Of a DNA stretch of 64,000 nucleotides, positions 35,641-41,192 are shown in pieces; position 1 is the first letter of the stretch; each line of letters begins with the position of its first letter. A program made the translations under genes and the position numbers. Origin of the DNA: Venturia oleaginea (Eukaryota > Ascomycota > Dothideomycetes > Venturiales > Venturiaceae); the NCBI GenBank assembly GCA_013176395.1, contig JABMLP010000015.1, positions 1 to 64,000 of the forward strand. The letters run 5' to 3'. Below the pieces are notes generated by a model, which had not been told where the DNA came from, did not search any database, and worked only from the letters and a program-made list of their open reading frames with translations.

Positions 35641-35920
35641 TGTCAAAGGATAGATCCTTTCTCAACTTATCCTGGATGGATTCTTAGCACTACCTGGTAG
35701 TTCTCACGTGCGCCTAGCAGGGATTATTCAGGGACCGTTTCACATGCGCTTCTACTCCTTTCTATTCTCTTCTCAGGACAACATGTCCTTTTCCTACTTG
35801 GAAGATTATATATACAATTTGTTCTTCCTGTACCTACACTTTCTTCTTTGTACTTAGATACTTGAAATATAAGCTGTCTTCCCTCACTTGCGAAACACCT
35901 TTGAGGGTTGAACTCTTACA
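35641..35920 (+). repeat. A2 5' LTR (280 bp)
   Basis: TGTCAAAGGATAG ... GAACTCTTACA. TATATATA at 35807-35814; predicted transcript start near GTACTTAGATA at 35850-35860. Confidence 0.92.
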
Positions 35921-35921
35921 T

Positions 35922-35932
35922 TATCTAAGTAC
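35922..35932 (+). promoter_or_regulatory. Self-priming-type PBS of element A
   Basis: TATCTAAGTAC, one base after the LTR, is the exact complement of GTACTTAGATA at 35850-35860 in the LTR. Eleven bases is the length used by Tf1, whose mRNA 5' end folds back to prime (established). No tRNA match is needed. Confidence 0.75.
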
Positions 35933-36244
35933 CGCACCAATACCTCTTGCTGACAGTAAGAGAGAGTCTCTGCAGCAATCGTCAGAGCAAAGAGAAAGCC
36001 CTCCATCGAGCGAGGTACCGAGAAAGCCCTCCATCGAGCGAGGCACTGAGAAAGCCCTCCATTGAGCGAGGCATTGAGAAAGAGTTTGCTAGGTACCTCA
36101 TAACCTAGGACGGATGCTACATCTTCTCATTGTGTAGTAATCACGAACGTCGAAGATTGAGAGTTGTTGAAACTTGTCCTTTGCGAAGGGATATCAACAA
36201 CGTCCAAAGTGACACCCACAAGTTGAAAGTACTCCCAGGTCAAT

Positions 36245-36815
36245 CCTGTTGGTGAGTCAAGGTCCTAAAGAGGACACCCAAGCCATTTCAGTACTCTCAG
36301 GAAGAGCCTGTAGAGTCAAGGTCCTAAAGAGGACACCCAAGCCATTTCCAGTACTCTCAGGACGAGCCTGCAGAGTCAAGGTCCTAAAGAGGACACCCCA
36401 GCCATTTCAGTACTCTCAGGAAGAGCCTGTAGAGTCAAGGTCCTAAAGAGGACACCCAAGCCATTTTCAGTACTCTCAGGATGAGCCTGCAGAGTCAAGG
36501 TCCTAAAGAGGACACCCCAGCCATTTCAGTACTCTCAGGAAGAGCCTGTAGAGTCAAGGTCCTAAAGAGGACACCCAAGCCATTTTCAGTACTCTCAGGA
36601 CGAGCCTGCAGAGTCAAGGTCCTAAAGAGGACACCCCAGCCATTTCAGTACTCTCAGGAAGAGCCTGTAGAGTCAAGGTCCTAAAGAGGACACCCAAGCC
36701 ATTTTCAGTACTCTCAGGACGAGCCTGCAGAGTCAAGGTCCTAAAGAGAACACCCCAGCCATTTCAGTACTCTCAGGAAGAGCCTGTAGAGTCAAGGTCC
36801 TAAAGAGGACACCTA
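36245..36815 (+). repeat. 60-bp leader repeats in A2 (about nine units)
   Basis: GTCAAGGTCCTAAAGAGGAC recurs every ~60 bp. As in A1, two subtypes alternate. The three-unit difference from A1 accounts for the length difference between the copies. Confidence 0.88.
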
Positions 36816-38457: not shown

Positions 38458-38468
38458 AGAGGCCCCTG

Positions 38469-40562
38469 TTGAATCCTAATGAAGCGCCTCATTTTCTGAA
38501 CAACCTTGGTACATTTAAGATGCTGGTCGAAGGAAAGATCGACGACGTACCAGCATGGGCCTTCATCGACACTGGTGCCGATAGGAATCTTCTAAGCGAG
38601 AAATTGGTCGACGAATGGAAACTACCCGTACGGTCGAAACGGCATCCATATCCACTAACTATCGCTGATGGAAGACCTGTCAACTTCAATGGAGGCATAG
38701 TGATCTACGAAGCAGACATAATCTTGTGGATACAAGGGAGGAAAGAACAGATTGTTCTAGACGTCACGAATATTGGAGACTCGGATTTGATCCTTGGTCT
38801 GTCGTGGCTTCGAACTCACAATCCGCATATCGACTGGAGAACATTGACGCGCACGTTCCCGGACCAACGATATCCCGTGCAGGCTAGCATGCGCGCTAGA
38901 ACACGGACAGCACAAAGACCTTTGCGGAAAAGGCCTACACACGTTGAAGTGGCATACTGCTATCGTCTCCAGACAGAGGAGGATAGGTCAGTGTTCCAAA
39001 TTCCCCATGGGTACCAGGAATTTGCAGAACTTTTTAAAAGGGAATCGATCGAAGATTCTCTTCCACCACACCAACCATGGAATCATGAGATCAAGCTCAA
39101 GAATAATGAACAACCAAAGAAGTTCAAGGTCTACCCATTGAGGGAAGATCAGCTTGAAACCCTTCGTGAATATATCGACGATTTCACGAAGAAGAAGTTC
39201 ATCCGGGAGTCGAAGTCACCCGCCGGATATTCAGTTTTCTACGTACCCAAGCCCGATGGTTCACAACGATTGTGTGTCGATTACCGACATCTAAATGAGA
39301 TTTCGGTGAAGAATGCGTACACGCTGCCTTTAATCCAGGAGTTGAGGGACAGACTCCAAGGAGCCAGATGATTCACGAAATTCGATATTCCTGCGGCTTT
39401 TCATCGAATTAGGATTAAGGAAGGTGACGAGTGGAAGACAGCATTCCGCACTCACCTTGAGCACTACGAATACCTTGTCATGCCCTTTGGTTTGACAAAC
39501 GCCCCTGCGACGCTGCAAGCCTATATGAACAATGTGCTTCGCGAGCACTTAGACAAGTTTGTGTCTGTTTATATGGATGACATTTTGGTTTACTATTGAA
39601 CGTTCAAAGAACACGCCAATCACGTTCGAACCGTCCTCCGCGCACTACAGATATTTAACTTGCGGCTGAAACCCTCGAAAAGCGAATTCCACAAGCAACG
39701 AATCAAGTTCGTTGGATGTTTTGTCTCTCAAGATGGACTTGAGATGGACCCGGAAATTTACCAGAAGGTCCGCGATTGGCCGGTACCCTCGAACGTCAAA
39801 GGAGTACAGTCATTTCACGCCTTCGCGAATTATTATCGACAATTCATCGAAAGCTTTTCCGAAGTTGCAGAACCCCTCACGGGATTGATGAAGAAGGGGA
39901 TTACCTTGGAATGGAACGAGCATGCGCAAAAGGCCTTTGACGCACTCAAGATACGGTTAACAACACCACCCATTCTGCAACTGTTTAACTCAGAAAAAAC
40001 AGCCACAGTCGAGGCGGATGCGTCCGATCGAGCCCTCGGAGCATGTCTCAGCCAACCTGATTCAGATGGAAAGCTAAGACCAGTAGCTTACCACGCACGA
40101 AAATTCCTGAAAGCAGAAGTCAACTACTCCACTTCAGACAAGGAACTCATGGCCATAGTTGATGCCTTCAAGCACTGGAAGCATTATCTTGAAGGAGCGA
40201 AACACAAGATTACCGTGTATTCCGATCACAAGAACCTGCGGAATTTCACGACGACAAAGGAATTGAATCGACGGCAACTAAGATGGTCAGAAGAACTGTC
40301 ATTTTACAACTTCCATATCCTTTACAAGAAAGGAAAGGAAAACGTTAACGCCGATGCATTAAGTCGACGAGAAGACTTCATGGCAGGAGAAAAAGAGAAA
40401 GTCGAACGCGCTTTGTTCCGACAGAAGGTGATGCACTTGTGCACCAAGTCTCATCACTTCAGACAGGAAAGCTCTCTTATTGGCAAGAGGTTAGGAACGC
40501 GCAGCAAAGGATCCAGATGTACAAGGCTACATTCAATCAGCAGATCAGAATACCCGTATTGA
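38469..40562 (+). pseudogene. A2 protease, reverse transcriptase and RNase H with two TGA codons
   Basis: Protease FIDTGADRNLLSEKL (about residue 32) keeps the DTGA site. RT reads LCVDYRHLNEISVKN to LQGAR, then TGA (39369-39371), then FTKFDIPAAFHRIRI, MPFGLTNAPATLQAYM, YMDDILVYY, then TGA (about 39597-39599), then FKEHANHVRTVLRAL. RNase H has VEADASDRALGACLSQ, DKELMAIVDAFKHW and YSDHKNLRNF, and ends ENVNADALSRREDF. The lesions fit TGG to TGA and CGA to TGA. Both are also in A1. Confidence 0.88.
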
Positions 40563-40925
40563 AGACGGATTGCTCCTCTTCAACAACTTGGTATATCTTC
40601 CCACGAGCCTTAGGAAACAGTACATCCTACATCAACACGAATCTCCACTCAATGGTCATTGCAGAGCAGAGATTGTCCTTTCACGACTTCAGAATACCTT
40701 CTACTTCCCGCGCATGCGACAGGAAGTTTTCAAGGAAATAGGAAAGTGTGTTCTTTGCAAAAAGGCCAAGTACGAACGACAGAAACTGTCGCATTAGATA
40801 CCTTTGAAAGTATCTACGGTGATGTTTTTCAAAACGACGGACCGAGTCTACGTCCTCCTAGGCGTACAAAAAGCAAAACCGCCCCAACGGAAACGGGGGA
40901 GAAGAAGGGTAATGTCAAAGGATAG
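40563..40925 (+). pseudogene. A2 integrase zinc head fused to a chromodomain tail
   Basis: After a frame change near 40450-40560, HQHESPLNGHCRAEIVL ... CVLCKKAKYERQK forms the HHCC head of integrase. Within ten residues it is joined, in another frame, to TVALDTFESIYGDVFQNDG, which aligns with the last part of the B2 chromodomain protein (TTALDAFESAYGNVLENDG). About 1.2 kb with the DDE core, GPY/F region and most of the chromodomain is gone. Confidence 0.85.
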
Positions 40926-41192
40926 ATCCTTTCTCAACTTATCCTGGATGGATTCTTAGCACTACCTGGTAGTTCTCACGTGCGCCTAGCAGGGATTATT
41001 CAGGGACCGTTTCACATGCGCTTCTACTCCTTTCTATTCTCTTCTCAGGACAGCATGTCCTTTTCCTACTTGGAAGATTATATATACAATTTGTTCTTCC
41101 TGTACCTACACTTTCTTCTTTGTACTTAGATACTTGAAATATAAGCTGTCTTCCCTCACTTGCGAAACACCTTTGAGGGTTGAACTCTTACA
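40913..41192 (+). repeat. A2 3' LTR (280 bp)
   Basis: One difference from the 5' LTR (CAGCATG for CAACATG). Preceded by GAGAAGAAGGGTAA. Confidence 0.92.

What the first reader, a model, noticed from the sequence alone, without database searches (positions are those of the whole stretch)
35641..41192. Element A: a mosaic, doubly defective gypsy derivative that still transposed, probably using family B machinery
Seen: A1 and A2 sit in separate perfect 5 bp duplications (GCTAT, CTATG) but share the same missing Gag capsid, missing zinc knuckle, missing integrase core, TGA codons and frameshift. The lesions therefore preceded at least one transposition. The leader up to GCAGAGCAGACT (about 37210), the R/U5 and the PBS match coding-competent family B; the Gag/PR/RT remnant resembles a different gypsy lineage, and the last ~40 residues resemble the end of the B chromodomain protein. 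Inference: template switching placed a foreign internal segment between B-type cis signals, giving a non-autonomous passenger mobilised in trans, much as retroviruses transduce foreign sequence.
Basis: partly seen in the sequence, partly recalled or inferred. Interest (0 to 1): 0.88.

Follow-up and report, generated by a model that had tools for sequence, protein, structure and literature searches.

The report
Chimeric broken retrotransposon that still jumps
A fungal jumping gene stitched together from two distant families has lost the parts it needs to copy itself, yet it has multiplied through the genome, most likely by borrowing the machinery of intact relatives.

Summary
In detail: A1 (27995-33370, minus) and A2 (35641-41192) are two insertions in one Copia element, each with a perfect 5-bp duplication. 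A is a D-K-D mosaic. Its LTR, leader and tail are D-type, D being a sister family of B with pieces in this window. Its middle (37217-40784) comes from K, a chromovirus lineage whose Pol is 34% identical to B's and which has its own LTRs, capsid, knuckle and integrase. Both joins recur genome-wide: 59 and 46 pattern sites, reversed controls 0. Twelve distinct A sites have perfect 5-bp duplications, seven of them with zero-difference LTR pairs. Copies read across the joins lack nearly all of the capsid and the integrase core, so those must come in trans; B is abundant, mostly without stops, and shares primer site and LTR end. Its conclusion survives on other copies. The kind is known (interfamily recombinants, trans-mobilised passengers); the evidence is unusually complete. 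Template switching and B as helper are inferred.

The parts
35636..35640 (.). A2 target duplication CTATG (left)
35641..35920 (+). A2 5' LTR, D-type (93.6% to D over 296 columns that run 13 nt past the LTR; the B LTR matches only its last 121 nt)
35850..35860 (+). 11 nt GTACTTAGATA, complementary to the primer binding site: predicted 5' end of the RNA and self-primer
35922..35932 (+). Primer binding site TATCTAAGTAC, same in B and D
35921..37216 (+). D-type leader with about 60-nt tandem repeats; last 31 nt before the join identical to D (L110), two differences to B in the last 23
37216..37217 (+). 5' junction: D leader to K gag at about codon 224 of a 692-codon stop-to-stop frame; nearly all capsid coding lies upstream and is missing
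37217..40784 (+). K-derived segment: gag remnant, protease, RT, RNase H, H2C2
37454..37457 (+). Place where the zinc knuckle is missing: 53 nt absent in the 24 A-type loci that could be read, and a further 64 nt absent in A1 and A2
38427..39371 (+). Open protease/early RT stretch ending at an in-frame TGA (39369-39371)
39597..39599 (+). Second in-frame TGA, also in A1, the C33 copy and one other tail locus (L055)
39600..40562 (+). Open RT-end/RNase H stretch; frameshift relative to K near 40424
40780..40790 (+). 3' junction: K (after H2C2) to D-type end of the chromodomain protein; integrase core missing
40785..40912 (+). D-type tail (ALDTFES...) with polypurine tract before the LTR
40913..41192 (+). 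A2 3' LTR
41193..41197 (.). A2 target duplication CTATG (right)
27995..33370 (-). A1; duplication GCTAT at 27990-27994 and 33371-33375; ends of the older C33 type
28046..32753 (-). Outer limits of the tract of A1 overwritten by A2-like sequence (inner limits about 28068-32439)
25637..42180 (+). Copia element holding A1 and A2 (LTRs 25637-25867 and 41950-42180, 98%)
45701..47671 (+). D family: leader and gag, truncated
53186..54400 (+). D family: RT part (76% nt identity to B)
60641..60940 (+). D family: LTR end, primer site and start of leader
54401..60252 (+). B2: B LTR, leader, gag (350 aa open) and pol (open in two overlapping parts): member of the abundant helper-candidate family

Best explanation
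A is a non-autonomous chimera of two Tf1/sushi-like chromovirus lineages, probably in a filamentous ascomycete. Shown: its outer parts (LTR, primer site, leader, tail with polypurine tract, LTR) are D-type and its middle is K-type; the same two joins recur in its copies; it has inserted repeatedly with exact 5-bp duplications while lacking nearly all of the capsid, the knuckle and the integrase core, and the five related young copies have a broken RT frame as well. Inferred: a D particle packaged a K RNA, and reverse transcriptase switched from D to K just inside the D 3' end and back to D in the leader, with little or no homology at either join. The product kept D's self-priming site, LTR ends and probably its packaging signal, so D and later the abundant B family supply Gag, RT and integrase in trans. 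The K-derived frames then decayed under little or no selection.
For: Joins at base level against D and K; 59 and 46 genomic sites of the joins, reversed-pattern controls 0. Two K loci: own LTRs of about 470 nt (both LTRs in L069, the 5' one in L103), knuckle in both, capsid, integrase and chromodomain matches in L069, 1214-codon pol frame in both. D stretches with A-type LTR, primer site, leader and tail. Perfect 5-bp duplications at A2, the A1/C33 site, C12 and nine other sites; zero-difference LTR pairs in 7 of 21 pairs compared. Five of those seven carry the first TGA, the frameshift and a further break in the RNase H frame. A, B and D share primer site, 11-nt self-primer and LTR 3' end; K differs in all three. 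B: 112 of 116 scored gag copies have no stop, 116 of 428 candidates being scored. Polarised codon changes among A copies are 39 nonsynonymous to 14 synonymous, not different from neutral (p = 0.41); K versus chimera 28 to 71, dN/dS about 0.11.
Against: No RNA, particle or cDNA data. Of the 21 5'/3' LTR pairs, 10 had matching duplications and 11 did not. Of the 11, one pairs an inner tandem LTR (C14), one runs into a contig end (C33:5262), one has a truncated 3' LTR (C16), three were fetched at places I guessed and held no LTR, and five are real mismatches (C32, C15:1064752, C2, C34, C61), which I read as recombined or rearranged ends. Pairwise dN/dS of the C12-type copy against 11 A copies is 0.38-0.70, below 1, so some past constraint on the chimera's RT is not excluded. 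The A tail is only about 75% identical to D, less than the LTR, so the exact D donor was not found. The K copy L069 has no matching duplication. DNA-level recombination could also have built the chimera.
Confidence: 0.82

Rival explanations
1. A1 and A2 (and many A copies) share lesions because the copies were duplicated or converted as DNA, not because a defective element transposed.
For: True for the A1/A2 pair: A1 carries an A2-type tract bounded on both sides by older sequence. Many copies lie in about 10.5-kb tandem repeats or at equal offsets from contig starts.
Against: Twelve distinct sites with their own 5-bp duplications, seven with zero-difference LTR pairs; 21 distinct 3' flanks at LTRs whose 3' end is present, among 30 tail loci.
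Confidence: 0.08
2. The chimera arose by recombination of genomic DNA (a K fragment captured in a broken D copy, or a nested insertion followed by deletions), and only afterwards moved as RNA.
For: Nested insertions and rearranged copies are common here; both joins have at most a few matching bases.
Against: Needs two events that both spare the D cis signals and remove both K LTRs; two switches in one round of reverse transcription is simpler.
Confidence: 0.25
3. The early chimera (C12 type) was only partly dependent: it made its own protease, RT and RNase H and borrowed capsid and integrase.
For: L104 has an open 790-codon frame with protease, RT, RNase H and H2C2 but no integrase core, with a perfect CCACC duplication. 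Pairwise dN/dS against 11 A copies is 0.38-0.70.
Against: Polarised changes on the C12-type branch are 8 nonsynonymous to 3 synonymous (dN/dS about 0.74), not different from neutral, though only 11 changes.
Confidence: 0.12
4. Copies enter the genome without integrase, by homologous recombination of cDNA with resident LTRs.
For: A tandem dimer on C14 shares one central LTR inside a single outer duplication, and C34 has tandem LTR-leader units.
Against: Uninterrupted Copia frame at the empty A1 and A2 sites with exact 5-bp duplications, and different flanks elsewhere, are the mark of integrase; recombination would need a solo LTR at every site beforehand.
Confidence: 0.05

Closest known systems
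Recombinant Athila lineages of Arabidopsis (PMC2410132; abstract and sections 7 and 8 read)
   Same: New LTR-retrotransposon lineages made by recombination between distantly related families, one shown active afterwards; many members non-autonomous.
   Different: There the non-autonomous families keep frames under purifying selection; here polarised changes in the K-derived frame look neutral, though pairwise values are 0.38-0.70. Here both parent families and both exact joins are in one fungal genome.
RLG_Cereba / RLG_Quinta of einkorn wheat (PMC11302176; abstract read)
   Same: An autonomous and a non-autonomous partner paired by shared LTR, primer-site and polypurine motifs; cross-mobilisation inferred from sequence.
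   Different: Quinta contributes Gag and evolved from Cereba; A lacks capsid and its coding part comes from a third, distant lineage.
Onsen recombinants of Arabidopsis (PMC5668417; abstract read)
   Same: Recombinants between LTR-retrotransposon copies formed during transposition bursts, likened to recombinant retroviruses.
   Different: Recombination within one family; here two families with 34% Pol identity and non-homologous joins.
Tf1/sushi-type self-priming chromoviruses of fungi (mechanism recalled; search listings only)
   Same: An 11-nt stretch of the LTR complementary to the primer site; Tf2-1-like SH3 domain and chromodomain in K and B.
   Different: A itself has lost the integrase core and chromodomain.

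Membership tests
Ty3/Gypsy chromovirus | Ty3-type RT and RNase H | tested here: met
   PF17917/PF17919 in A2; PF00078 in the open C12-type copy
Ty3/Gypsy chromovirus | Integrase core and C-terminal chromodomain | tested here: not met
   No match in A2 pieces or the C12-type frame, matched in K copy L069; A derives from chromoviruses but is not a complete one
LTR retrotransposon | TG...CA LTRs, primer site, polypurine tract, constant-length target duplication | tested here: met
Tf1/sushi-type self-priming element | 11-nt complementarity between LTR and primer site | tested here: met
   A, B, D and K
Tf1/sushi-type self-priming element | Priming by the cleaved RNA 5' end | not testable with these tools
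   Needs cDNA or RNA end mapping
Non-autonomous partner mobilised in trans | Cis signals shared with a coding-competent family in the same genome | tested here: met
Non-autonomous partner mobilised in trans | Multiple independent insertions of copies lacking essential genes | tested here: met
Non-autonomous partner mobilised in trans | Packaging and reverse transcription by the helper | not testable with these tools
   No expression or particle data
LARD (large derivative without coding sequence; definition recalled) | Internal region without recognisable coding homology | tested here: not met
   A keeps recognisable protease, RT and RNase H
Interfamily recombinant (Athila type) | Segments matching different families, with mapped joins | tested here: met

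The most novel reading that the evidence does not exclude
Helper switching by a transduction-like chimera. One round of reverse transcription in a D particle captured 3.6 kb of RNA from a lineage only about 34% identical in Pol, by two non-homologous switches. The product outlived its now scarce founder family D by passing to the related, very abundant family B, which mobilises it today although B gave it neither its ends nor its middle.
Probability: 0.35. Interest if true: 0.6.

Novelty: new member of a known kind. Interest (0 to 1): 0.45.

Why it matters
Chimeric and passenger LTR retrotransposons are known; the three papers I opened are on plants. Here one fungal genome holds the chimera, relatives of both parents, an early form with an open RT frame, a decayed recent burst and a plausible helper. 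That makes it possible to ask which few cis signals suffice for mobilisation, how unrelated two RNAs may be and still recombine in one particle, and whether passengers can change helpers. It also shows a trap: two nearby copies with shared lesions and separate target duplications can owe their likeness to gene conversion rather than transposition.

Tried and rejected
A1/A2 sharing as evidence of order of events: rejected after the three-way comparison with the C33 copy. B as donor of A's ends: rejected in favour of D, because U3 and the last leader bases fit D better. A solo B LTR in K copy L069 looked at first like the source of A's left end, because BLAST homology began exactly at its edge; its own TCAGG duplication and continued homology across the empty site show a separate insertion. 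Functional RT in the early chimera: tested, not supported by the polarised counts, not excluded by the pairwise ones. In one search a joined Copia frame seemed broken at the A1 site; that was an off-by-one of mine, corrected. One search printed a wrong A1 duplication for the same reason; one search gives the right one. The 3' LTR windows of three copies (C15:34760, C45, C31:149527) were guessed and held no LTR, so those pairs say nothing. The seven paper searches listed no report that I recognised as this fungal chimera; they cover only the held open library and no wider absence is claimed. The host was not identified: the named hits among the 120 of 4337 listed relatives of B Pol are from Berkeleyomyces, Purpureocillium, Metarhizium and Hirsutella, 46-49% identical; that these are filamentous ascomycetes is recalled. 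Protein and DNA searches score only the best candidates, so copy numbers from them are lower bounds.
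Full report
WHAT IS THERE. The window lies on contig C7 of a 46-Mb, 61-contig genome. The named hits among listed relatives of B Pol are from fungi that I recall as filamentous ascomycetes. A2 (35641-41192) and A1 (27995-33370, minus) lie at two places in one Copia element (LTRs 25637-25867 and 41950-42180; domains). 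Each has a perfect 5-bp duplication, and the local empty site reads as one open frame at both. They are two insertions, not one insertion duplicated by rearrangement.

A IS A MOSAIC. I compared A with three families; the names D and K are mine. B is the abundant 333-nt-LTR family of the window (54401 on). K carries A's type of RT. Two K loci were read, chosen for long frames. L069 has both LTRs (about 470 nt), a gag with capsid matches interrupted by a solo B LTR, and a 1214-codon pol with protease, RT, RNase H, integrase, SH3 and chromodomain matches. L103 has the 5' LTR, a 692-codon gag frame with a CCHC knuckle and a 1214-codon pol frame. D is a sister of B (gag 61% identical) with pieces in this window at 45701-47671, 53186-54400 and 60641-60940. 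It was found by listing primer-site motifs (186 in the genome): of the first 100 listed, 66 lay before a B gag, 17 before an A gag and 17 before neither on my partial lists. Six of the 17 were fetched: three are B, two D (L108, L110) and one A. L111 adjoins L110.

A's LTR matches D along its whole length (93.6% over 296 columns in L110), while the B LTR matches only its last 121 nt. The last 31 leader nucleotides before the 5' join are identical to D (L110) and differ from B at two places; the next bases are K gag. At the 3' join K ends after the H2C2 region and D-type sequence begins at the end of the chromodomain protein, followed by polypurine tract and LTR; this tail is about 75% identical to D. 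K and B Pol are 34% identical (302 of 883 aligned positions), so the two lineages are distant.

THE JOINS ARE FAMILY-WIDE. A 29-nt pattern over the 5' join occurs at 59 sites (54 exact, 5 with one mismatch) and one over the 3' join at 46 (40 exact, 6 with one mismatch); the reversed control patterns occur at 0. The 59 include three partial tandem units on C34 and two inverted half-copies on C22, so they are not 59 full elements. The 5' join was read directly in 21 of 30 gag loci; the other 9 could not be projected there, but one search places the pattern inside all nine. All 30 tail loci have the same tail-to-LTR join (one with a changed first LTR base), though they were found with a query that spans the 3' join.

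WHICH LESIONS ARE OLD. Given by the joins: nearly all of the capsid (K gag is entered at about codon 224 of 692; the capsid profile in L069 ends at 240) and the integrase core. The knuckle is missing as a 53-nt gap in 24 of 24 A-type loci where both flanking marks were found; 7 of the 31 A-type loci tried, A1 and A2 among them, did not match the marks; both K loci have the 53 nt. In the main A lineage: the first TGA in 22 of 23 tail loci that cover it (7 of 30 do not) and the frameshift near 40424 in 30 of 30; neither is in the 2 K loci. Young or local: the second TGA in 4 of 28 readable tail loci (A1, A2, the C33 copy and L055), and the 64-nt deletion in A1 and A2 only, of 26 projected gag loci. 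A copy on C12 (L104) has both joins, the knuckle deletion and a perfect CCACC duplication, but an open 790-codon frame with protease, RT, RNase H and H2C2 and no integrase core. The chimera therefore formed before its RT frame broke. Two C34 sites share the C12-type 3' join and were not read.

TRANSPOSITION AFTER THE DAMAGE. Ten of 21 5'/3' LTR pairs had matching 5-bp duplications; one of the ten, on C33, is at the same site as A1. With A2 and L104 that makes 12 distinct sites. Seven pairs (C1, C59, C31:87705, C26, C3, C37 and the outer LTRs of the C14 tandem) have no difference between their LTRs. Five of these (C59, C31:87705, C26, C3, C37) share a further small change near 39597, carry the first TGA and the frameshift, and have an additional break in the RNase H frame. 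This burst had no intact RT frame and no integrase core of its own. The 11 non-matching pairs are itemised under evidence against.

THE A1/A2 ARGUMENT FAILS. A1's two LTRs are 87-88% identical. The C33 copy at the same insertion site has two LTRs of A1's 5' type (278 identities, 2 mismatches, 1 gap), and A1's 5' LTR equals the C33 5' LTR apart from one gap. Across A1, leaving out gaps and a 127-nt stretch of C33 that I did not fetch, every informative site from the 5' end to 32754 is C33-like, all but one from 32439 to 28068 are A2-like, and the last three are C33-like again. A2, or a copy like it, has overwritten the middle of A1. Their shared lesions say nothing about transposition; the other copies do.

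HOW IT PROBABLY WORKS. The LTR holds GTACTTAGATA (35850-35860), complementary to TATCTAAGTAC just after the LTR (35922-35932), the arrangement I recall for self-priming Tf1-type elements; D and B have the same 11 nt, K a different 11-nt pair. A, B and D share the LTR 3' end, K does not. So D- or B-type machinery, not K's, should recognise A. B is abundant: 116 of 428 candidate gag copies were scored, all 99-100% identical, 112 without a stop, and many listed B pol copies have a 1286-codon frame. D is scarce: six gag hits of at least 86% outside the window and one long D pol frame, 1318 codons. B is therefore the likelier present helper. Polarised codon changes among A copies are 39 nonsynonymous to 14 synonymous, on the A stem 12 to 7, on the C12-type branch 8 to 3; none differs from neutral (p = 0.41, 0.16, 0.71). 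K against the chimera is 28 to 71, dN/dS about 0.11 (626 codons, 12 A copies of which at least 3 had to cover a codon, 2 K copies that had to agree). Unpolarised pairs of the C12-type copy with 11 A copies give dN/dS 0.38-0.70, so a past period of some constraint is not excluded. On balance the chimera looks like a passenger.

ORIGIN. Two template switches during reverse transcription of co-packaged D and K RNAs explain why both ends are D-type, why both K LTRs are missing and why the joins have almost no shared bases. DNA-level recombination is not excluded. I rate the mosaic and trans-mobilisation reading at 0.82 and template switching within it at about 0.7.

NOVELTY. Recombinant and cross-mobilised LTR retrotransposons are established (PMC2410132, abstract and two result sections read; PMC5668417 and PMC11302176, abstracts read). 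This is a new member of a known kind, notable for the distance between the parents and for the preserved series from early chimera to decayed burst.

Noticed in passing
L002-L006 (contig C34:199087-206045): Tandem LTR-plus-leader units of 1828 nt run into a further A copy; each unit stops about 15 nt past the D/K join.
   Followed up: partly
L042, L043, L082 (contig C14:126149-136872): Two A copies in tandem share one central LTR inside a single outer duplication (GGTAT), as expected of cDNA recombination or unequal exchange.
   Followed up: partly
L069:1221-1555: A solo B-type LTR with TCAGG duplication sits in the gag of a K copy.
   Followed up: yes
window 47672-53074 against 54401-60252: B1 lacks about 780 nt at the end of pol, with the gap ending at the first base of its 3' LTR; a copy on C1 (C1:19973) shows the same 1090-codon pol frame.
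   Followed up: no
window 60253-60836: Composite of part of a B LTR, an inverted A/D-type LTR piece and a D-type LTR with primer site.
   Followed up: no
contigs C11, C18, C27; starts of C1 and C61: About 10.5-kb tandem repeats each hold an A gag segment and a B element; C1 and C61 have A copies at identical offsets from the contig start, suggesting duplicated subtelomeres.
   Followed up: no
window 20210-22033, 62050-63249, 7512-8480: Another reverse-transcriptase frame, a further integrase-bearing Gypsy piece, and a major-facilitator transporter frame (Pfam matches).
   Followed up: no
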